Source: Mycolicibacterium sp. MU0053 (GTDB lineage Bacteria > Actinomycetota > Actinomycetes > Mycobacteriales > Mycobacteriaceae). From it: 64,000 nt of DNA. Shown here piece by piece: positions 55,899 through 64,000 of the stretch. A program made the translations under genes and the position numbers. The notes below the pieces were generated by a model. That model did no database searches, was not told the origin of the DNA, and was given only the letters and a program-made list of their open reading frames with translations. How positions within the stretch are numbered: position 1 is the first letter of the stretch; each line of letters starts with the position of its first letter. The stretch spans positions 3,286,001 through 3,350,000 of the forward strand of contig NZ_OY726397.1 of NCBI RefSeq assembly GCF_963378095.1, given 5' to 3'.

Positions 55899-56984
55899 CT
55901 AAACCCGCTGCGCGGCAACCGCTCCCGCGGCATGTAGCCATCGCAGCGGATCGCCGATCGCCGCGTCGCCCGAACCCGCGAGCTCGGTCAGCGACACGGT
56001 CGGCACCGTGCACTGCGCGGCGACCTGGCCGGCGACGACGACCGCGGCCGTGCCGGCCTGTTCAGCCGCGGCCAGCACGTGCCCGACCAGCTTGCCGCCC
56101 AACGAGGTGTCGTCGAAGCGACCCTCGCCGGTCACGACGACGTCGGCGTCGGCGAGGTGTCGCGGCAACCCCGTGAGCGCGGCGATGCGCTGCGAACCGG
56201 ACGTCGTGGTCGCACCCCAGGCCAGCAGCCCGAATCCGACTCCGCCGGCCGCCCCGGCGCCGGGTTGCTCGGGGTCGGCGGCCAGCCCGGCCGCGCGCAG
56301 GGCCTGCGCCCAGCGCCGCAGACCGCTGTCCAGCCCGGCGATGTCCTCGGGGTTCGCGCCCTTCTGCGGGCCGAAGACCGCCGCGGCTCCCCGCGGACCG
56401 TACAGCGGTGCCTCGGTGTCGGCGAGCAGTTCGACGCCGCCCGGAGGCAGCGCCGCAAGTCCTTCCGCGTCGACGTGTGCCAACTCGGCCAGGCCACGCG
56501 CGCCGACGCCGATCGGGTTGCCCCCGGCGTCGAATGCCTTGAGCCCGAGTGCCATCAGCACTCCGGCGCCGCCGTCGGTGCTGGCCGATCCGCCCAGCCC
56601 CACCTGCACCGAGCGCGCGCCCGCGGCCAGTGCCGCCGCGATCACCTCGCCCAGCCCGCGACTGTCGGCGCGCCACGGGTCCAGCCGCGGCAGCAACGCG
56701 ATCCCGGAGGATTCGGCGAGTTCGGCCACCGCGCGGCCGTCGTCGTCGAGGAGCCAGCGCGCGGGCACGCGCCGACCGTCCGGGCCGTGCACCTCGAGTT
56801 GTCGCCAGTGCCACGCCCCGGCGGTCGCGATCGCCTCGAGAGTGCCCTCACCCCCGTCGGCCTGGGGCAGCAGCACGATCTCGTCGTCGCCGCGCATCGA
56901 CCGCCAGCCGTGCGCCAGGGCCGCGGCCACCTCGGCGGCCGAGGCGGAACCCTTGAAGGAGTCCGGCGCGATCAGGACCTTCAC
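55899..56984 (-). CDS. Glycerate kinase (GarK/type 2)
   Basis: This 361-residue enzyme phosphorylates glycerate with ATP (family products are 2- or 3-phosphoglycerate). The N-terminus is VKVLIAPDSFKGSASAAEVAAALAHGW. The signature VGLGGSASTDGGAGVLMALG (about 125-144), TEAPLYGPRGAAAVFGPQKGA and VVTGEGRFDDTSLGGKLVG (near 300) mark the family. The start is GTG, overlapping the sugar-isomerase-like gene by four bases. It is last in the four-gene operon and suggests that the pathway yields glycerate. Confidence 0.92.
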   Translation of the reverse strand: MKVLIAPDSFKGSASAAEVAAALAHGWRSMRGDDEIVLLPQADGGEGTLEAIATAGAWHWRQLEVHGPDGRRVPARWLLDDDGRAVAELAESSGIALLPRLDPWRADSRGLGEVIAAALAAGARSVQVGLGGSASTDGGAGVLMALGLKAFDAGGNPIGVGARGLAELAHVDAEGLAALPPGGVELLADTEAPLYGPRGAAAVFGPQKGANPEDIAGLDSGLRRWAQALRAAGLAADPEQPGAGAAGGVGFGLLAWGATTTSGSQRIAALTGLPRHLADADVVVTGEGRFDDTSLGGKLVGHVLAAAEQAGTAAVVVAGQVAAQCTVPTVSLTELAGSGDAAIGDPLRWLHAAGAVAAQRV

Positions 56985-57820
56985 AGGGCGGGCAGCACCA
57001 GATCCGAGTACCTGCGCTTCATCGTCTCGATGACCGCACGCCCCTCGGTTGCCCACACCGCCTCGTTGAAAATCTCGACCTCCACGTCGCCGTCGTAGCC
57101 CGCCGTCGCCACCAGTGTGCTGATGGCGTCGAAGTCTATGACGCCATCGCCCATCATGCCGCGCGACACCAACGGGTCGGCGGTCATCGGCACCAGCCAG
57201 TCGCATATCTGGTAGGAACTGATGCGGCCTTCGCGGCCCGCCGCGGCGATTCCGGACGCCAGGTCGGGATCCCACCACACGTGGAAGGTGTCGACGACGA
57301 CGCCGACCACGTCCGCGGGATGCGGAGCCGCCAATTCCAACGCCTGCCCCAACGTCGAGATCACCGCGCGGTCGGCGCAGAACATCGGGTGCAGCGGTTC
57401 GAGCGCGAGCCGCACATGGTGCTCTGCCGCGTACGGCGCCAGGGCGGCGATCCGGTCGGCCAGCCGAGCGCGGGCACCGGCCAGGTCGCGATCCGGGATG
57501 CCGCCGGCCACCAGCACCAGCTCGGAAGTGCCCAGGGTGGCGGCCTCCTCGATGGCGCGGCGGTTGTCCGCCAGCGCCGCCGGGCCGTTGTCGATCCCGG
57601 TGAGAAAGCCGCCCCGGCACAGGCTCGAGACTCGGAGTCCGTTGTCGTGCACCAGCTTCGCGGCCATGTCCACGCCGACCTCGGCGACCCGGTCGCGCCA
57701 GAGCCCGATCGCCGGCAGCCCCGCGTCGGCCGTGCCTTCCACCGCCTCGCGGAGTGTCCAGGACTTTGTCGTCATGGTGTTGAGCGACAACCGCGCGTAT
57801 TCCGTGCCCGCGGCCGTCAT
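56981..57820 (-). CDS. Sugar phosphate isomerase/epimerase-like TIM barrel
   Basis: This 279-residue AP-endonuclease-2-fold protein has the metal-ligand pattern of this family: Glu in LALEPLHPMF (near 148), Asp/His in VVVDTFHVWWDPDL (near 180), His/Asp in ICDWLVP and Glu in EVEIFNEAVW near the C-terminus. IolE/IolH and xylose-isomerase-like enzymes share it; all isomerise or dehydrate sugars and polyols. It overlaps the genes on both sides by four bases, so it is an integral part of this operon. The exact reaction is unknown. Confidence 0.85.
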   Translation of the reverse strand: MTAAGTEYARLSLNTMTTKSWTLREAVEGTADAGLPAIGLWRDRVAEVGVDMAAKLVHDNGLRVSSLCRGGFLTGIDNGPAALADNRRAIEEAATLGTSELVLVAGGIPDRDLAGARARLADRIAALAPYAAEHHVRLALEPLHPMFCADRAVISTLGQALELAAPHPADVVGVVVDTFHVWWDPDLASGIAAAGREGRISSYQICDWLVPMTADPLVSRGMMGDGVIDFDAISTLVATAGYDGDVEVEIFNEAVWATEGRAVIETMKRRYSDLVLPAL

Positions 57821-59025
57821 GAGCCGACACCGTGCACGGTCAGGAACATCCGCATCCGGCCCGCCGCCAGGTCCGGGTCCGACAGCAACCCGGCACGGTC
57901 GGCGAGCACGAACAGCTCGCACAGGTGGCCCACCGAGCGGCCCGAGGCAAGCCCGCCGACCATCGCGAAGCCGGGCTGCTGACCGTTGAGCCAGGACAGA
58001 AACGCGATGCCGGTCTTGTAGTAGTAGGTCGGGGCGGCGAAGATGTGTCGGCCCAATGCGCGGGTGGATTCCAGGATGTCGCGGGCGCGCTCGGTGTTGC
58101 CGCCGTCCAACTCCTGCAACGCGGTCGAGGCCGCCGGGTAGATCGCGGCGAAGATGCCCAACAGCGCATCCGAATGACCCGCGCCGTCGCCGATGATCAG
58201 TTCCGGGTAGTTGAAGTCGTCGCCGGTGTACAACCGCACCCCGACGGGCAAGGCGCGACGCAGTGCCACCTCGTGTTCCGCGTCGAGCAGCGACACCTTC
58301 ACACCGTCCACCTTGTCGGCGTGGTTTTCGATCAACTGCCCGAAGGTGGTGGTGGCCGCGGCGATATCGGTGCTGCCCCAATAGCCGCGCAGCGCGGGGT
58401 CGAACATCTCCCCCAGCCAGTGCAGGATCACGGGCTGGTCTGCCTCGGTGAGCACGGCCGCGTACACCGACAGGTAGTCGACCGGCGTGGTCGCGACGTG
58501 TGCAAGCGCCCGGGAGGCCATCAGGATCACCTGCGCGTCGGCCCCGCGCACGACGTCGATCTGGGTGCGGTAGGCGTCGGTGATCGCCGCCAGGCCGCGG
58601 GCGCCGGCAGGGACGTCGGCGATGGCGAGATGGTCGGTGCCGGCCCCGCAGGCCAGCCGACCGCCGACGGCGGCGGCCTCGCGCCCGCTGCGGGCGATCA
58701 GGTCCTTGGTGGCGGCCCAGTCCAGGCCCATCCCGCGTTGGGCGGTGTCCATCGCCTCGGCGACACCGAGCCCGTAGGACCACAGCTGATGGCGGTAGGC
58801 CAGGGTGTGGTCCCAGTCCAGGTCGGCCGGTGCGCCCGGGGTGTTGTCGGCATCCACCTTGGGGATGACATGTGCTGCGGCATAAGCGATCCGGGACGAG
58901 AGTGGCGCGTCGGGACGCCGCCATGGTCCGGGGCGGCCGAGCTCGTGGCGGCGCAACTCGCCGCCAACCGGCAGCGTGAGCCCGATGCCGGTGGCCGTGG
59001 CCGTGGCCGTGCCGGCGGCGGTCAC
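57817..59025 (-). CDS. DUF993 protein, DapA-like class I aldolase candidate
   Basis: This 402-residue DUF993 protein is related to dihydrodipicolinate synthase-type TIM barrels. A GxK element at Lys243 (DKVDGVKVSLLD) stands where DapA has its Schiff-base Lys. Residues 268-270, in LYTGDDFNYPELI, match the DapA GDD turn. The DapA Tyr motif (YDIPPR) is replaced by ILHWLGEMFD near 200. The N-terminus is Thr/Ala-rich; GTG 59025 overlaps the dehydrogenase stop by four bases. It probably cleaves or forms a 2-keto acid intermediate. That reaction is inferred, not shown. Confidence 0.82.
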   Translation of the reverse strand: MTAAGTATATATGIGLTLPVGGELRRHELGRPGPWRRPDAPLSSRIAYAAAHVIPKVDADNTPGAPADLDWDHTLAYRHQLWSYGLGVAEAMDTAQRGMGLDWAATKDLIARSGREAAAVGGRLACGAGTDHLAIADVPAGARGLAAITDAYRTQIDVVRGADAQVILMASRALAHVATTPVDYLSVYAAVLTEADQPVILHWLGEMFDPALRGYWGSTDIAAATTTFGQLIENHADKVDGVKVSLLDAEHEVALRRALPVGVRLYTGDDFNYPELIIGDGAGHSDALLGIFAAIYPAASTALQELDGGNTERARDILESTRALGRHIFAAPTYYYKTGIAFLSWLNGQQPGFAMVGGLASGRSVGHLCELFVLADRAGLLSDPDLAAGRMRMFLTVHGVGS

Positions 59026-60188
59026 AGCTCGATCTCCGGGACAACGATGCGCCGGCCCTCGGCCGAGCTGCGCAGCCCCAGCTCGGCCAACTGCACTCCG
59101 CGCGCGGCCGACAGCAGGCCGAACCGGTGCGGGCGACCCGCGACCACGTCGCGCAGGTACTCCTCCCACTGCAGTTTGAAACCGTTGTCCAAGTCGGCGT
59201 TCGCGGGCACCTCGAGCCACTGGTCGCGGAACGTCTCGGTCACTGGAAGATCGGGATTCCAAACGGGTTTGGGCGTGTGGGCGCGCTGCTGGGCGACACA
59301 GCGTCGCAGTCCGGCGACCGCGGAGCCGTGGGTGCCGTCGACCTGGAATTCGACGAGTTCGTCGCGGTACACCCGGACCGCCCACGACGAGTTGATCTGC
59401 GCGATGATGCCGCCCTCGATCTCGAAGATGCCGTAGGCCGCGTCGTCGGCGGTGGCGTCGTAGGGTCGGCCCTGCTCGTCCCAGCGGGTCGGGACGTGGG
59501 TGACGGTGCGGGCGGTCACCGCCTCGACGGCGCCGAGCAGCCCCTCCATCACGTAGTTCCAATGGCAGAACATGTCCACGGTGATGCCGCCGCCGTCCTC
59601 GGCGCGGTAGTTCCAACTCGGACGTTGGGCCGGCTGGCCGTCCCCCTCGAACACCCAGTAGCCGAATTCGCCGCGCATCGACAGGATGCGCCCGAAGAAG
59701 CCCTCGTCGACGAGCCGGCGCAGCTTGACCAAACCCGGCAGATAGAGCTTGTCGTGCACCACCCCGGCGACGACGCCGGCGTTCTCGGCCATCCGCGCGA
59801 GTTCCACTGCTTCGCTGAGTGTTTCGGCAGTCGGCTTCTCGGTGTAGACGTTCTTGCCCGCCTTGATCGCCGCGGTCAGGGCAGCCATCCGCCGAGAGGT
59901 GACCTGCGCGTCGAAGTACACCTCCACCGTCGGATCGGCGATCACCGATGCCAGGTCGGTGGTCCAGCCTTCGACGCCGTGGGCGGCGGCGATTTCGGCG
60001 AGCTTGTCGGCGTTGCGGCCGACCAGGATCGGTTCCACCTCGACCCTGCGGCCGTCCTCGAGCAGCAGTCCGGTGTCACGCAACGGCAGGATGGACCGCA
60101 GCAGATGTTGGCGGTAGCCCATCCGGCCGGTCACGCCATTCATCGCGATACGGAGTTTGGTGCGGCCGGAGCCGGGAGATGCAGACAT
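59022..60188 (-). CDS. Gfo/Idh/MocA family dehydrogenase
   Basis: This 388-residue NAD(P)-dependent sugar or polyol dehydrogenase has the N-terminal cofactor loop NGVTGRMGYRQH (about 17-28) and the family EKP motif at 117-119 (VYTEKPTAE). The substrate domain contains DGGGITVDMFCHWNYVMEGLLG, with a His as candidate catalytic residue. The glycine loop is unusual (GVTGRMG rather than GxGxxG). ATG 60188 has GAGGAA nine bases upstream. It is first in the operon and diverges from the LacI regulator; the shared operator lies 115-128 bases upstream of its ATG. Confidence 0.9.
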   Translation of the reverse strand: MSASPGSGRTKLRIAMNGVTGRMGYRQHLLRSILPLRDTGLLLEDGRRVEVEPILVGRNADKLAEIAAAHGVEGWTTDLASVIADPTVEVYFDAQVTSRRMAALTAAIKAGKNVYTEKPTAETLSEAVELARMAENAGVVAGVVHDKLYLPGLVKLRRLVDEGFFGRILSMRGEFGYWVFEGDGQPAQRPSWNYRAEDGGGITVDMFCHWNYVMEGLLGAVEAVTARTVTHVPTRWDEQGRPYDATADDAAYGIFEIEGGIIAQINSSWAVRVYRDELVEFQVDGTHGSAVAGLRRCVAQQRAHTPKPVWNPDLPVTETFRDQWLEVPANADLDNGFKLQWEEYLRDVVAGRPHRFGLLSAARGVQLAELGLRSSAEGRRIVVPEIEL

Positions 60189-60302
60189 GCGCGAATTCCT
60201 CGTCTAGTGAACCGGCGGATCGGACGCCGACAGCCAGTGCGGTCGATGGGACCTGGCGCCGCGACCATCTCGGCAACGAGTGGGCGGCGATGCGTGCACT
60301 TC

Positions 60303-60316
60303 GGAATGCGCTTTCC
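60303..60316. promoter_or_regulatory. LacI-type operator, copy 1
   Basis: GGAATGCGCTTTCC is a 14-bp near-palindrome (GGAAwGCGCwTTCC) with the central CG typical of LacI-family operators. It lies between the regulator ATG (60380) and the divergent dehydrogenase ATG (60188). TAGACT, five bases downstream of it on the plus strand (60321-60326), could be the regulator gene's -10. The reverse complement of the same 14-mer occurs at 61487. Confidence 0.75.
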
Positions 60317-60379
60317 AAGGTAGACTGCGCAGGCGTTCCGGTCAACTCCGGAACTCTCGAAAAACGAGCGGGAGCGGCG

Positions 60380-61411
60380 ATGGCGGCGGTAACCCTGCAG
60401 GACGTGGCGCAGCGGGCCGGAGTGTCCCAGGCCACCGCATCGCGCGTGCTCAACGGCTCGAGCCGGGTGCCGGGCGAGGATGTCGCGGATCGGGTCCGCA
60501 CCGCCGCGCGCGAACTCGGCTACGTCCCCAACGCCCAGGCGCAGGCACTGGCGCGGGCCTCGACGGGACTGCTGGGCCTGGTCGTCCACGACATCGCCGA
60601 CCCCTACTTTTCGTCGATCGTGCGCGGCGCGCAGGCCGCGGCGCGCGCCGCGGCCAAGCAGGTGCTGCTGGCCAGCACCGACCGGGACTTCGACATCGAA
60701 CGCGAATCGGTCAGCACCTTCATCGCCCACCGCGCCGACGCGATCGTACTGGCCGGCTCGCGCCAGAGCGGGCATTTGGACCGCGAACTGGAAGCCGAGT
60801 TCGAGCGCTACCGCGCCAACGGCGGACGGTTGGTCGTCATCGGCCAGCCATTGGCATACGGCGGCGCTGTCGAGCCCGAGAACCAGGCCGCCGCAGCGGA
60901 ATTGGCCGAGGCACTGATGGACGCCGGACATCGCCAATTCGCGGTGATCGGCGGCCCGGGCAGCATCCGCACCGCGGTCGATCGCCGCAACGGATTCGTC
61001 GAGGCCCTCTGCCGACGGGGGCTTTCCACGGTCGTGGAGGTCTCGGGCGACTTCACCCGCGACGGCGGGTACTCCGCGGCCCGTCGGCTGGCCGCCGCGC
61101 TGCAGCTCGAACCCGGCGCCGCGGCCGCGCCGGTGTGCGTCTTCGCCGTCACCGACGTGATGGCGATCGGCGCCATCGCCGCCTGGCGCGAGCTGGGCCT
61201 GCAGGTGCCGCGTGATGTGTGCATTGCCGGCTTCGACGACATCCCCACGCTGCGGGACCACACCCCGAGCCTGACGACCGTCGCGCTCCCGCTCGAGCGG
61301 ATCGGTGCGCGTGCCGTCGAGCTCGCACTTCACGGCGCCGGCGACATCGATGACCTGCGTGAACGCGTACCCGGACGGGTCCTGCTGCGGGACAGCACCC
61401 GTCTGGACTGA
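60380..61411 (+). CDS. LacI-family transcriptional regulator
   Basis: This 343-residue repressor has the helix-turn-helix VTLQDVAQRAGVSQATASRVLNG (residues 4-26), a hinge with YVPNAQAQALARA, and a periplasmic-binding-like effector domain (LLGLVVHDIADPYFSSIVRG to FDDIPTLRDHTPSLTTVALPLERIG). The ATG with GGGAG upstream is used; ATG 60290 is in frame but would put the operator inside the gene. It should repress the divergent catabolic operon, itself and the importer through the two 14-bp sites. The effector is probably a sugar-like pathway compound. Confidence 0.93.
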   Translation: MAAVTLQDVAQRAGVSQATASRVLNGSSRVPGEDVADRVRTAARELGYVPNAQAQALARASTGLLGLVVHDIADPYFSSIVRGAQAAARAAAKQVLLASTDRDFDIERESVSTFIAHRADAIVLAGSRQSGHLDRELEAEFERYRANGGRLVVIGQPLAYGGAVEPENQAAAAELAEALMDAGHRQFAVIGGPGSIRTAVDRRNGFVEALCRRGLSTVVEVSGDFTRDGGYSAARRLAAALQLEPGAAAAPVCVFAVTDVMAIGAIAAWRELGLQVPRDVCIAGFDDIPTLRDHTPSLTTVALPLERIGARAVELALHGAGDIDDLRERVPGRVLLRDSTRLD

Positions 61412-61444
61412 GGTACGCGCACCCGGGACGCACCCCCGATGCAG

Positions 61445-61473
61445 TTGACAGTGTGTGCGAGGTCACGTTATCG
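61445..61473 (+). promoter_or_regulatory. Promoter of the importer operon
   Basis: TTGACA (61445-61450) is a perfect -35 element. It is followed after 17 bases by TTATCG (61468-61473), a weak -10. The second LacI operator starts 13 bases downstream, over the expected start of transcription, where a bound repressor would block initiation. Confidence 0.55.
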
Positions 61474-61486
61474 TCGGAACCGCTTC

Positions 61487-61500
61487 GGAAAGCGCATTCC
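61487..61500. promoter_or_regulatory. LacI-type operator, copy 2
   Basis: GGAAAGCGCATTCC is the exact reverse complement of the 14-mer at 60303-60316. It lies 51 bases before the permease ATG and just downstream of the TTGACA promoter. Two identical sites flanking the LacI gene, in front of the two diverging units, indicate control by that regulator. Confidence 0.78.
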
Positions 61501-61551
61501 CAGCGGGTGAGGATCTTCGCTCCCGCGCCACTGCGACCCTTAGGAACCTCG

Positions 61552-62421
61552 ATGGCGGTAACCGCTTCGACTCGCGCCCAGACACCGGCGGGCGGCCCGG
61601 CCGCCCGGCCCGTCGCCCCACGGGCGCGGCGGACCTTCTCCCCACGCCGCACCGCGGCTTCGGTGTGGCGGCCGCTGATCCTCGTCATCGCCCTGGTGGC
61701 CGGCTGGTGGGCGGTTACCGAGGCCCAGCTGGTGGCCCCCTACATCCTGCCGTCGCCCGCCGATACCTGGAATGCCGCCGCGGACAACGTCGGCTACCTG
61801 GCACAGCACACCTGGGTGACGACGTGGGAGACGGTGGCCGGCTTCGTGATCGCCGCCGTCCTCGGCGTGTTCATGGCGGTGGTGATGGTCTACTCCACGA
61901 GCCTGGAGAAAACGGTCTACCCCCTCATCCTCTTCGCCCAGGTGATCCCCAAGATCGCCGTCGCGCCGCTGTTCATCGTGTGGTTGGGCTTCGGTCCCTC
62001 GCCGAAGATCCTGGTCGCCGTGCTCATGGCGTTCTTCCCGATCGTCATCTCGGGGCTGGCCGGGATGCGGTCGGTGGACCCGGAGATCCTGGAACTCACC
62101 TCCACGATGGGCGCCAGCCGGTTCAAGACCTTCTGCAAGGTCCGGCTGCCGGCCGCACTGCCCCAGCTGATGTCCGGGCTCAAGGTCGCCGCCACCCTCG
62201 CGGTCACCGGTGCGGTGGTCGGCGAATTCGTCGGCGCCAATGAAGGGCTCGGCTATGTCATCCTGCAGGCGAACGGAAATATCGACACCGCAATGCTTTT
62301 CGCGGCGCTGATCATCATGTCGATGCTCGGGATCCTGATGTTCGCGATCATCGAGATCGCTGAACGCCTGCTCATCCCCTGGCATTCATCGCGGCGCATC
62401 GTCAATTCCGCCGCCGTGTGA
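61552..62421 (+). CDS. ABC transporter permease (SsuC/ThiX-like)
   Basis: This 289-residue permease has six spans. The EAA loop ELTSTMGASRFKTFCKVRLPAALPQLMSGLK (about residues 180-210) contacts the ATPase, and the N-terminus is a basic, disordered 40 residues. It belongs to the nitrate/sulfonate/taurine/pyrimidine importer family (BPD_transp_1), not the sugar importer family. The ATG at 61552 (AGGA upstream) excludes an open extension covering the operator. The binding-protein gene follows after 31 bases. Confidence 0.9.
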   Translation: MAVTASTRAQTPAGGPAARPVAPRARRTFSPRRTAASVWRPLILVIALVAGWWAVTEAQLVAPYILPSPADTWNAAADNVGYLAQHTWVTTWETVAGFVIAAVLGVFMAVVMVYSTSLEKTVYPLILFAQVIPKIAVAPLFIVWLGFGPSPKILVAVLMAFFPIVISGLAGMRSVDPEILELTSTMGASRFKTFCKVRLPAALPQLMSGLKVAATLAVTGAVVGEFVGANEGLGYVILQANGNIDTAMLFAALIIMSMLGILMFAIIEIAERLLIPWHSSRRIVNSAAV

Positions 62422-62452
62422 CCATCGACCCAAACGAACCAGGAGCTGATCC

Positions 62453-63484
62453 ATGATCGTCACCCGACCCCGTCTCACGGCCGTAGCCGCGGCCGCCGCC
62501 GCGATGCTGGCGCTGGCAGGCTGCGGTAGCGGCGCCGAGAACACCGCGGCCACAGCGGGTTCCACCGCCCCGGCCACGCTGATGTTGAACTGGTATCCGT
62601 ACGGTGAGCACGCCCCGTTCTACTACGGCGTGCAGGAGGGCATCTTCGCCAAGCACGGCATCGACCTGCAGGTCGACGCCGGCCAGGGCTCCACCAAGAC
62701 CGCGCAGGCGGTGGGCTCGTCGAAGGTCGACTTCGGCTGGGCCGACGCACCCGCGGTGCTGAGCAACATCGACAAGGGCGTCGACATCAAGAGCGCGGGA
62801 GTCTTCCTGCAGACGACACCGTCGGCCGTGCAAGTGTTCGCCGACTCCGGGATCGAGACCCCGCAGGATCTTTCGGGCCGCACCATCGCGGTGTCCGCCG
62901 GCGACGCCCCGACCACCACGTTCCCGATCTATCTCGAAAAGGTCGGCGTCGCCGAGGATCAGGTGACCCAGCAGAGCCTGGACGCCGCGGGCAAGATGGC
63001 CGCCATGCTGGCCGGCCGGGTCGACGGGCTGATCGGCTTCTCCCACGACCAGGGCCCCACCGTTGCCGACAAGAGCGGCCGGGACGTGCATTACCTGCGT
63101 TACTCCGATGCGGGCCTGAACTTCTACAGCAACGGCCTGATCGCCAACACCGCCACCATCGAGGGTGACCCGGAACTGGTGCAATCGATGGTCGACGCGA
63201 CCAGCGAGGCGTTCGCCGCGGCCGTCGCCGACCCCGACGCCGCGGTCGAGGCGATGGTCGGCAAGGATCCGCAGATGCCGCCGCGCGAGGTGCTGCTCGA
63301 ACAGTGGAAACAGACCATCCCGCTGCTGTCCACCCCCGCCACCACCGATCAGGCGCCCGGCTTCAACGCCCCCGAGGACTGGACCACCACCGTCACCACC
63401 TTGACCGAGGCCGGACTGCTGGAGTCGGCGAGAGACCCCGGTGTTTACTGGGACGCGTCGTTCGCGCCCAAGGCCGAGCAGTAG
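62453..63484 (+). CDS. ABC transporter substrate-binding lipoprotein, NMT1/THI5-like
   Basis: This 343-residue lipoprotein has a signal peptide ending in LALAGC with Cys24 as the lipidation site. The domain resembles NMT1/THI5 and SsuA proteins: LMLNWYPYGEHAPFYYGVQEGIFAKHGIDL (about 43-72), then STKTAQAVGSSKVDFGWADAPAVL. Relatives bind pyrimidines, riboflavin-like compounds, sulfonates or nitrate. In this locus the ligand should be what the dehydrogenase-aldolase operon degrades, so the transporter type is unexpected for a simple sugar. Confidence 0.9.
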   Translation: MIVTRPRLTAVAAAAAAMLALAGCGSGAENTAATAGSTAPATLMLNWYPYGEHAPFYYGVQEGIFAKHGIDLQVDAGQGSTKTAQAVGSSKVDFGWADAPAVLSNIDKGVDIKSAGVFLQTTPSAVQVFADSGIETPQDLSGRTIAVSAGDAPTTTFPIYLEKVGVAEDQVTQQSLDAAGKMAAMLAGRVDGLIGFSHDQGPTVADKSGRDVHYLRYSDAGLNFYSNGLIANTATIEGDPELVQSMVDATSEAFAAAVADPDAAVEAMVGKDPQMPPREVLLEQWKQTIPLLSTPATTDQAPGFNAPEDWTTTVTTLTEAGLLESARDPGVYWDASFAPKAEQ

Positions 63485-63497
63485 GAAGGGCAACGAC

Positions 63498-64000
63498 ATG
63501 ACCGCCGCAACACTCCCCCGACCGAAGACCACTGTGACCGAAGACGCCATCGCGATCGACGACCTCAACGTCACCTTCTCCTCCAAGCGCGGCACCGTGA
63601 CCGCCCTGCAGGACATCAACCTGCGGGTGGCCGACGGCGAGTTCGTCTCCATCGCCGGACCGTCGGGCTGCGGTAAGTCGACGCTGCTCAAGGTCATCGC
63701 CGGGCTGACCGACTCGACCTCCGGCGAGGTGCGCCTGCGGGGCAACCCGGTCCGCGGACCGCAACGCGAGATCGGCTACGTGTTCCAGCGCGCCGCGCTG
63801 CTGGAATGGCGTTCGGTCCGGCGCAACGTGTTGCTGCAGGCGGAGATGCGGGGCATGCCGCGCAAGCTCGCCCAGCAACGCTGCGACTACCTGATCGAGA
63901 TGACCGGCCTCAGCGGATTCGAGAGCGCGCTGCCGCATGAGCTGTCCGGCGGTATGCAGCAACGTGTTTCGTTGTGTCGGGCACTCCTGCACGAACCGGA
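63498..64000 (+). CDS. ABC transporter ATP-binding protein, N-terminal part
   Basis: The gene starts 13 bases after the binding-protein gene, with GGAAGGG as ribosome site, and runs off the window; 167 residues are visible. Walker A is GPSGCGKST at 54-62, the Q-loop is in IGYVFQRAALLEW near residue 97, and the ABC signature is LSGGMQQRVSL at 149-159. It belongs to the SsuB/TauB type and completes the importer. Walker B lies just beyond the end. Confidence 0.93.
   Translation, partial: MTAATLPRPKTTVTEDAIAIDDLNVTFSSKRGTVTALQDINLRVADGEFVSIAGPSGCGKSTLLKVIAGLTDSTSGEVRLRGNPVRGPQREIGYVFQRAALLEWRSVRRNVLLQAEMRGMPRKLAQQRCDYLIEMTGLSGFESALPHELSGGMQQRVSLCRALLHEP

What the first reader, a model, noticed from the sequence alone, without database searches (positions are those of the whole stretch)
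55899..64000. Candidate undescribed uptake and degradation system: DUF993 aldolase, dehydrogenase, isomerase, glycerate kinase and an NMT1-type importer
Four minus-strand genes overlap by four bases each (Gfo/Idh dehydrogenase, DUF993, sugar-isomerase-like TIM barrel, glycerate kinase). They diverge from a LacI regulator followed by a complete ABC importer. The enzymes suggest oxidation, isomerisation, aldol cleavage and phosphorylation of glycerate. The importer is of the pyrimidine/sulfonate/nitrate type rather than a sugar type, so the substrate may be an unusual polyol, sulfosugar or N-containing ring compound. I know of no characterised pathway with this gene set.
Basis: partly seen in the sequence, partly recalled or inferred. 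Interest (0 to 1): 0.78.

Follow-up and report, generated by a model that had tools for sequence, protein, structure and literature searches.

The report
Uptake-and-cleavage operon for unknown sugar acid
A bacterium carries one compact gene block, marked by a DNA signal found at only two places in its whole genome, that likely takes up and would break down a still unknown sugar-like acid with the help of a protein family (DUF993) for which my searches found no described function; it matters because it gives that widespread family a small, testable pathway.

Summary
Four minus-strand genes (glycerate kinase, TIM barrel, DUF993, Gfo/Idh) overlap by 4 nt each and diverge from a LacI regulator and a three-part NMT1-type importer, whose ATPase ends 310 nt past the window. 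The unit is not chance. DUF993 lies within 3 kb of the same Gfo/Idh in 85 of 88 DUF993 genomes (296 searched). All 45 binding-protein orthologues (42% identity or more) in 298 genomes sit in DUF993 genomes, 40 within 4.8 kb. The three closest plasmid relatives, in Alphaproteobacteria, also lie beside DUF993. A new point: the near-palindrome GGAAWGCGCWTTCC occurs exactly twice in the 5.45-Mb genome, before the enzyme operon and before the importer. DUF993 has a dihydrodipicolinate-synthase fold and an invariant lysine, but lacks that family's signatures; the closest solved relatives of all three enzymes bear only generic names. The proposed route (oxidise, Schiff-base retro-aldol, isomerise, phosphorylate glycerate) fits, but the substrate is not determined; a polyhydroxylated anion is my best inference, from importer types. 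In most related loci this importer is absent, and other transporter types stand near DUF993 in some.

The parts
55899..56984 (-). glycerate kinase (PF02595, TIGR00045), last gene of the enzyme operon
   Evidence: (303.5 bits, cut-off 168.45); the only PF02595 match in this genome
56981..57820 (-). AP_endonuc_2 / xylose-isomerase-like TIM barrel; E141, D177, E247 conserved, likely metal site (that assignment is recalled)
   Evidence: (relatives 7vpf, 3qc0, 3ju2 'SMc04130')
57817..59025 (-). DUF993 (PF06187), DHDPS-like fold, invariant K243 and TGDD 267-270; predicted Schiff-base aldolase
59022..60188 (-). Gfo/Idh/MocA dehydrogenase with EKP (117-119) and D205/H209 invariant; closest solved relative 3oqb ('Oxidoreductase')
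60303..60316 (.). predicted LacI operator GGAATGCGCTTTCC between Gfo/Idh and LacI
60380..61411 (+). LacI-family regulator
61487..61500 (.). second predicted operator (reverse complement of the first), ending 51 nt before the permease ATG
61552..62421 (+). ABC permease (SsuC/TauC/SaoP-like, below their curated cut-offs)
62453..63484 (+). NMT1-type lipoprotein solute-binding protein; NWYPYGEHAPF signature
63498..64000 (+). ABC ATPase, continues past the window to position 64310

Best explanation
This is one likely catabolic unit of four overlapping enzyme genes and, divergent from them, a LacI-type regulator gene and an NMT1-type importer, with the same 14-base near-palindrome before both halves and nowhere else in the genome, that likely imports a small polyhydroxylated acid, is predicted to oxidise it to a keto acid (Gfo/Idh), would split that by Schiff-base retro-aldol cleavage (DUF993), likely rearranges a three-carbon keto product (TIM barrel) and would feed glycerate to glycolysis through glycerate kinase. 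Shown: gene order, families, the fold of the DUF993 model, invariant residues, co-occurrence, and the shared near-palindrome. Inferred: that LacI binds it, that the importer carries an anion of the sugar-acid type, and the order of the enzyme steps. The specific route I would test first: sugar acid -> 2-oxo sugar acid (Gfo/Idh) -> hydroxypyruvate + glyceraldehyde (DUF993) -> tartronate semialdehyde (TIM, hydroxypyruvate-isomerase-like) -> glycerate (reductase or aldehyde dehydrogenase encoded elsewhere) -> 2-phosphoglycerate (GK). No sugar kinase is in the unit, so the route would be non-phosphorylative until glycerate.
Against: No substrate is known for any member. Sugar-type importers stand near DUF993 in other lineages, in L084 without extra dehydrogenases of the GMC type, which suits a neutral sugar. 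TIM also matches the dehydroshikimate dehydratase QuiC as well as IolO, so the keto-acid-isomerase hint is thin. A local glycerate kinase is in 14 of 80 loci only. pAO1, Roseibium and Peteryoungia have DUF993 and GK without the TIM gene, so the TIM step is not always needed. No dehydrogenase or reductase for the three-carbon products is in the operon. Residue-level equivalence of K243 with the DHDPS lysine rests on an hhalign match of 1.3% probability plus the fold. The near-palindrome was not found in the stretches L056, L075 and L152, where the importer is present too. The GTTGE-type loop is not seen in the alignment (by eye). DUF993 also occurs in gene sets (CoA-transferase, acyl-CoA dehydrogenase, ETF) that this scheme does not explain. 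Two of 89 Gfo/Idh genomes have no DUF993 match.
Confidence: 0.4

Rival explanations
1. A 3-keto-sugar route: Gfo/Idh oxidises a neutral sugar or anhydrosugar at a ring hydroxyl, the TIM barrel isomerises or eliminates, and DUF993 cleaves the keto sugar; the importer has merely been recruited.
For: Best (sub-threshold) equivalog of the Gfo/Idh is levoglucosan dehydrogenase (67.9 bits, cut-off 650); Rbs- or Mal-type sugar importers near DUF993 in L083, L084, L099 and GMC oxidoreductases in L083, L095, L099; GMC plus gluconate 2-dehydrogenase subunit 3 plus cytochrome c in L091; a GH3 family within about 7 kb of the triad in nine Streptomyces or Kitasatospora loci.
Against: NMT1-type and TTT importers are not known to me for neutral sugars (recalled); no glycosidase in the window operon; the levoglucosan match is far below its cut-off.
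Confidence: 0.3
2. A cyclitol (inositol-like) route: Gfo/Idh makes an inosose, TIM isomerises it, DUF993 opens or cleaves the product.
For: Gfo/Idh matches inositol dehydrogenases weakly (iolG 49 bits, cut-off 355; scyllo-inositol dehydrogenase 5ya8, 63 bits); TIM matches IolO and IolI weakly.
Against: No sugar kinase, hydrolase or IolD-like gene in the unit; the NCBIfam matches are far below cut-off.
Confidence: 0.12
3. The D-xylose pathway proposed for plasmid pAO1: Gfo/Idh as xylose dehydrogenase, DUF993 acting on a 2-keto-3-deoxy acid.
For: pAO1 carries Gfo/Idh (76% identical) and DUF993 (67%) with AldH annotated 'D-xylose catabolic process' and GK; the title of a paper on a pAO1 xylose pathway was seen in a reference list.
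Against: No sugar-acid dehydratase in the window operon; pAO1 has a sugar-type importer and lacks TIM; the text of the paper is not held, so which gene was assayed is unknown to me.
Confidence: 0.08
4. The unit degrades an N-containing ring or pyrimidine-like compound, as the SBP relatives of ThiY/THI5 might suggest.
For: Closest solved SBP relative binds a formyl-aminopyrimidine (3ix1, 65 bits); an importer relative in Phyllobacterium (L115) stands near an Amidohydro_2 protein.
Against: No amidohydrolase, deaminase or oxygenase in the window unit; all its enzymes are sugar-type; the SBP and 3ix1 are only distant relatives.
Confidence: 0.04

Closest known systems
Dihydrodipicolinate synthase / class I pyruvate aldolase superfamily (PF00701: DHDPS, KDG aldolase, NanA)
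   Different: Not matched by PF00701 at E 0.001; GTTGE- and YNVP-type signatures not seen by eye; about 100 residues longer
pAO1 sugar cluster of Paenarthrobacter nicotinovorans (xylose pathway, Mihasan et al. 2013; title only seen)
   Same: Gfo/Idh, DUF993 and glycerate kinase in a row
   Different: Sugar-type importer, GMC and aldehyde dehydrogenases, GntR regulator, no TIM gene
S. meliloti chromosomal genes SMc04130 (3ju2), SMc04132 (4dnh), SMc04133
   Same: Solved homologues of TIM and DUF993; the adjacent numbers suggest the same triad (not checked on the chromosome)
   Different: Uncharacterised or hypothetical in the PDB entries; SMc04132 'uncharacterized' and SMc04133 'putative oxidoreductase' in PMC12542648 (passages)
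Inositol (Iol) and levoglucosan (Lgd) routes built of Gfo/Idh plus AP2-type TIM enzymes (recalled)
   Same: Combination of enzyme folds
   Different: No DUF993 and other importers (recalled); equivalog cut-offs not reached
SsuABC / TauABC / ThiXYZ importers
   Same: Three-part importer with an NMT1-type SBP (PF09084)
   Different: Below SsuA, SsuC, TauC and SaoP cut-offs; an orthologous group of its own, tied to DUF993

Membership tests
DUF993 (PF06187) | Pfam score above gathering cut-off | tested here: met
   593.3 bits, cut-off 24
DHDPS-type class I aldolase (PF00701) | Pfam PF00701 match | tested here: not met
   only PF06187 reported at E<=0.001; the genome's PF00701 matches are four other places
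DHDPS-type class I aldolase (PF00701) | fold | tested here: met
DHDPS-type class I aldolase (PF00701) | Schiff-base lysine at the equivalent place | tested here: inconclusive
   K243 invariant and aligned with the lysine of the genome's own DapA, but at 1.3% probability
DHDPS-type class I aldolase (PF00701) | aldol cleavage activity | not testable with these tools
   needs enzyme assay
Gfo/Idh/MocA | N- and C-terminal Pfam domains and EKP / DxxxH-type residues | tested here: met
   E117 K118 P119 D205 H209 in 81 of 81
Levoglucosan dehydrogenase (NF052479) | equivalog cut-off | tested here: not met
   67.9 bits, cut-off 650
Hydroxypyruvate isomerase (TIGR03234) / IolO (NF041099) | equivalog cut-off | tested here: not met
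   20.9 of 353.45 and 30.9 of 300 bits
Glycerate kinase (TIGR00045) | curated cut-off | tested here: met
   303.5 bits, cut-off 168.45
Aliphatic sulfonate SBP (TIGR01728 SsuA) | curated cut-off | tested here: not met
   74.9 bits, cut-off 163.5
NMT1/THI5-like SBP (PF09084) | Pfam cut-off | tested here: met
   149.2 bits, cut-off 20.5
LacI-family repressor | LacI HTH domain | tested here: met
   PF00356, 55.8 bits, cut-off 27
LacI-family repressor | conserved near-palindrome in front of the presumed target units | tested here: met
   before both units here and in L003-L013; not found in L056, L075, L152
LacI-family repressor | binding and effector | not testable with these tools
   needs gel shift

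The most novel reading that the evidence does not exclude
DUF993 founds a new class I aldolase family that cleaves an unphosphorylated 2-oxo sugar acid to hydroxypyruvate (or a like keto acid) and glyceraldehyde, in a non-phosphorylative route shared by Actinomycetota, Alphaproteobacteria and Bacillota, and the NMT1-type importer tied to it is a sugar-acid importer, a substrate class not known to me for that transporter family.
Probability: 0.22. Interest if true: 0.75.

Novelty: new variant of a known kind. Interest (0 to 1): 0.58.

Why it matters
DUF993 is widespread (88 of 296 genomes of the class, 117 of 298 of the order) and has a solved structure, yet no function that I could find in the papers searched. 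Here it is bound to one importer, one regulator gene and one DNA site that occurs exactly twice in this genome and in each of nine Mycolicibacterium/Nocardia/Rhodococcus-type relatives. So a binding assay on the lipoprotein or a regulator-effector screen could name a substrate for the family. The cross-phylum link of an NMT1-type importer with sugar enzymes would also widen what that transporter family is thought to carry.

Tried and rejected
Protein database search with DUF993 failed on time and was not repeated. Papers: DUF993, PF06187, 4dnh, 7vpf, 3oqb, 3ju2, 3qc0, SMc04130-SMc04137, some guessed S. meliloti tags, pAO1 plus xylose, and gene-set phrases gave nothing on function; the library holds open-licence papers only. 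Two pAO1 papers that mattered are not held.

Considered and rejected: that the importer is a chance neighbour (speak against it); that the enolase-superfamily gene beside L152 belongs (nearest to muconate cycloisomerases). The 462-488-aa proteins near the triad in Proteobacteria (L084, L096, L109, L113, L115) are enolase-like in three of five by Pfam and match no NCBIfam model; they have no counterpart in the window, so I did not use them for the mechanism. Second near-palindromes: in L021 and L024 one lies before an AP2-type TIM gene; three outside the loci were fetched: one stands before a pgi-zwf gene pair, one near a UbiA-family gene at a contig end, one beside a DUF6807/Gfo-Idh/sugar-ABC group, not clearly as its promoter. 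The five copies of G322 were not followed. None gave a clear substrate. Nothing was concluded from absences in the fold searches.

Limits of counts: Fisher values (1e-21, 1e-71) are not corrected for kinship. One search scores at most seven candidates per genome and does not list its weakest rows, so 45 is a lower bound. One search kept the best 80 of at least 585 loci. Gene calls in relatives are my own script's and rough. Rows dropped: L001 and the window copy left out of relative counts; L083-L085 are in the residue counts (84, 81, 81 sequences) but not in the 80; from alignment A1 (39 rows) to A2 (26 rows) the 13 plasmid rows were left out for the structure job.
Full report
WHAT IS THERE. 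The window is positions 3286001-3350000 of a 5.45-Mb single-contig genome. Its closest named relatives at this locus are Mycobacterium and Mycolicibacterium (DUF993 74-78% identical), then Nocardia and Rhodococcus (71-74%). The ATPase runs past the window and ends at 64310. To the right follow a MatE protein and a DHH-family protein. Families: PF02595, PF01261, PF06187, GFO_IDH_MocA, LacI, BPD_transp_1, NMT1. Of the four enzymes only glycerate kinase passes a curated NCBIfam cut-off.

THE ENZYME TRIAD IS A FIXED UNIT. In 80 loci from named genomes (the best 80 of at least 585 found), Gfo/Idh is beside DUF993 in 77, TIM in 78, LacI in 64, glycerate kinase in 14 and the NMT1-type SBP in 13. L043 lacks Gfo/Idh because its contig ends at DUF993; L060 and L062 lack both partners. 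In a separate sample of 296 genomes of the class, 89 have the Gfo/Idh orthologue (E 1e-100 or better) and 88 have DUF993; 87 have both, two have the dehydrogenase alone and one DUF993 alone. 85 of 88 DUF993 matches have the dehydrogenase within 3 kb. The dehydrogenase keeps E117-K118-P119, D205 and H209 in 81 of 81; TIM keeps E141 and D177 in 81 of 81 and E247 in 80 of 81 (one gap); DUF993 keeps K243 and T267-G268-D269-D270 in 84 of 84. That these are the catalytic and metal positions of the superfamilies is recalled, not tested.

THE IMPORTER BELONGS TO IT. In 298 genomes of the order, 117 have DUF993. The SBP search finds 45 matches at 42-100% identity (one of them with a stop inside) and then nothing above 32% in the listed rows. 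All 45 lie in DUF993 genomes, 40 of them within 4.8 kb of DUF993; the other five are on other contigs (Fisher 1e-21 without correction for kinship). In the other 72 DUF993 genomes no such match was found, so the importer is lineage-specific. In Micromonospora-type relatives the genes form one run PERM-SBP-ATP-GFO-DUF993-TIM-GK with LacI divergent (L152; L075, and L056 without a GK hit). Among 72,556 plasmid records the three best SBP relatives, at about 36% identity, are in two Chelatococcus plasmids and Azospirillum lipoferum, and in all three DUF993 lies within about 5 kb on the same strand. In the two loci fetched, L096 and L113, permease, SBP and ATPase (35-54% identical) stand in the same direction before GFO-DUF993-TIM, with one other gene between. 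The fourth (Rhizobium sullae, L114) has no DUF993 in the 16.8 kb fetched, and in the fifth (Phyllobacterium, L115) DUF993 is about 12 kb away.

A SHARED DNA SITE. Between Gfo/Idh and LacI lies GGAATGCGCTTTCC (60303-60316) and before the permease its reverse complement (61487-61500). GGAAWGCGCWTTCC occurs at exactly these two places in the genome, the reversed control at none; with one mismatch there is one more place (1989293), fetched but not followed up. Nine relatives with the importer (G298-G306, that is L003, L005, L006, L008-L013) have again exactly two copies each, both in this locus. Of 17 further relatives whose loci lack this importer, 11 have one copy, five have two and one has five. 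52 of the 80 loci have the site; L056, L075 and L152, which have the importer, do not. In two Arthrobacter loci (L045, L050) a second copy lies beside a permease pair of the sugar type, as if the importer had been exchanged under the same control. Binding by LacI is inferred.

HOW IT LIKELY WORKS. No kinase for a sugar is in the unit; the only kinase is for glycerate. Glycerate kinase is tied to the unit at three different places (after TIM in the window and L011, after the ATPase in Nocardia L006-L010, beside LacI in L036-L037) and is the only one in this genome. It is also near DUF993 in plasmid loci with otherwise different enzymes (L083, L085, L093, L095, L099, L108, L112). So DUF993 probably makes glycerate or its precursor. 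Importers of presumed anion type (NMT1; TTT in L091 and L109) suggest an acid. Where a sugar importer stands near DUF993, extra GMC or aldehyde dehydrogenases stand there too in L083 and L099, which could make the acid inside the cell; in L084 they do not. TIM matches keto-acid isomerases weakly, and the dehydratase QuiC about as well. From this I propose oxidation, retro-aldol cleavage of a 2-oxo acid, isomerisation of hydroxypyruvate and phosphorylation of glycerate. Each step is untested. Other contexts (CoA-transferase, acyl-CoA dehydrogenase, SDR and ETF genes in L108, L110, L112) show that DUF993 also serves in gene sets I cannot explain with this scheme.

WHAT IS KNOWN. No paper in the library searched names DUF993 or PF06187. 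The closest solved relatives of the dehydrogenase (3oqb, 461 bits) and TIM (7vpf, 3qc0, 3ju2) are named 'Oxidoreductase', 'Xylose isomerase', 'sugar isomerase' and 'uncharacterized protein SMc04130'. PMC12542648 (passages read) lists SMc04132 and SMc04133 as uncharacterised or putative proteins with negative log2 values in a PhaR table. PMC6305408 (passages read, mostly its reference list) cites a 2013 paper on an oxidative xylose pathway of pAO1, whose text is not held. Since pAO1 carries part of this gene set, that paper is the main risk to novelty.

VERDICT. New variant of a known kind: a non-phosphorylative sugar-type route with a new aldolase-like family and an unusual importer.

Noticed in passing
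L108:1279-9814, L110:1028-10645, L112:88-10737: DUF993 (with TIM, and GK or LacI in part) among CoA-transferase, acyl-CoA dehydrogenase, SDR, aldo/keto reductase and, in two of the three, ETF genes in Rhodococcus, Rhizobium and S. meliloti plasmids: a second, quite different pathway type.
   Followed up: partly
L095:542-5928, L099:3819-11463: GMC oxidoreductase, Dabb, DUF993, LacI and glycerate kinase in a row without the triad's Gfo/Idh or TIM.
   Followed up: no
L065, L066, L068-L070, L078-L081: Nine Streptomyces or Kitasatospora loci have a GH3-family gene near the triad, most of them with a second AP2-type TIM gene.
   Followed up: partly
L149:5743; L148:180: A copy of the near-palindrome lies before a pgi-zwf gene pair in Nesterenkonia halophila (G317); in an Arthrobacter (G307) another lies near a UbiA-family gene at a contig end.
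   Followed up: partly
L147:7531-11640; L029, L039, L041, L045, L048, L059: DUF6807 and Gfo/Idh proteins recur near the near-palindrome or the triad in Arthrobacter relatives.
   Followed up: no
L114:5628-7052, L115:12159-17744: Importer relatives in Rhizobium sullae and Phyllobacterium stand near similar-looking proteins, Amidohydro_2 by Pfam in L115 (the L114 one not tested).
   Followed up: partly
window genus: The locus is patchy in the window's own genus: six genomes with DUF993 (own included) and twenty listed without it, so gain or loss seems frequent.
   Followed up: no
L058:6411-18219: Leekyejoonella antrihumi: two sulfatases, SIS, ROK and PfkB proteins and a class II aldolase around the triad, in the same direction.
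   Followed up: partly
L053:582-8773: Nakamurella endophytica: a run with an epimerase, copper amine oxidase, AP2 TIM, Gfo/Idh, BadF-type ATPase and aldehyde dehydrogenase leads into the triad.
   Followed up: partly
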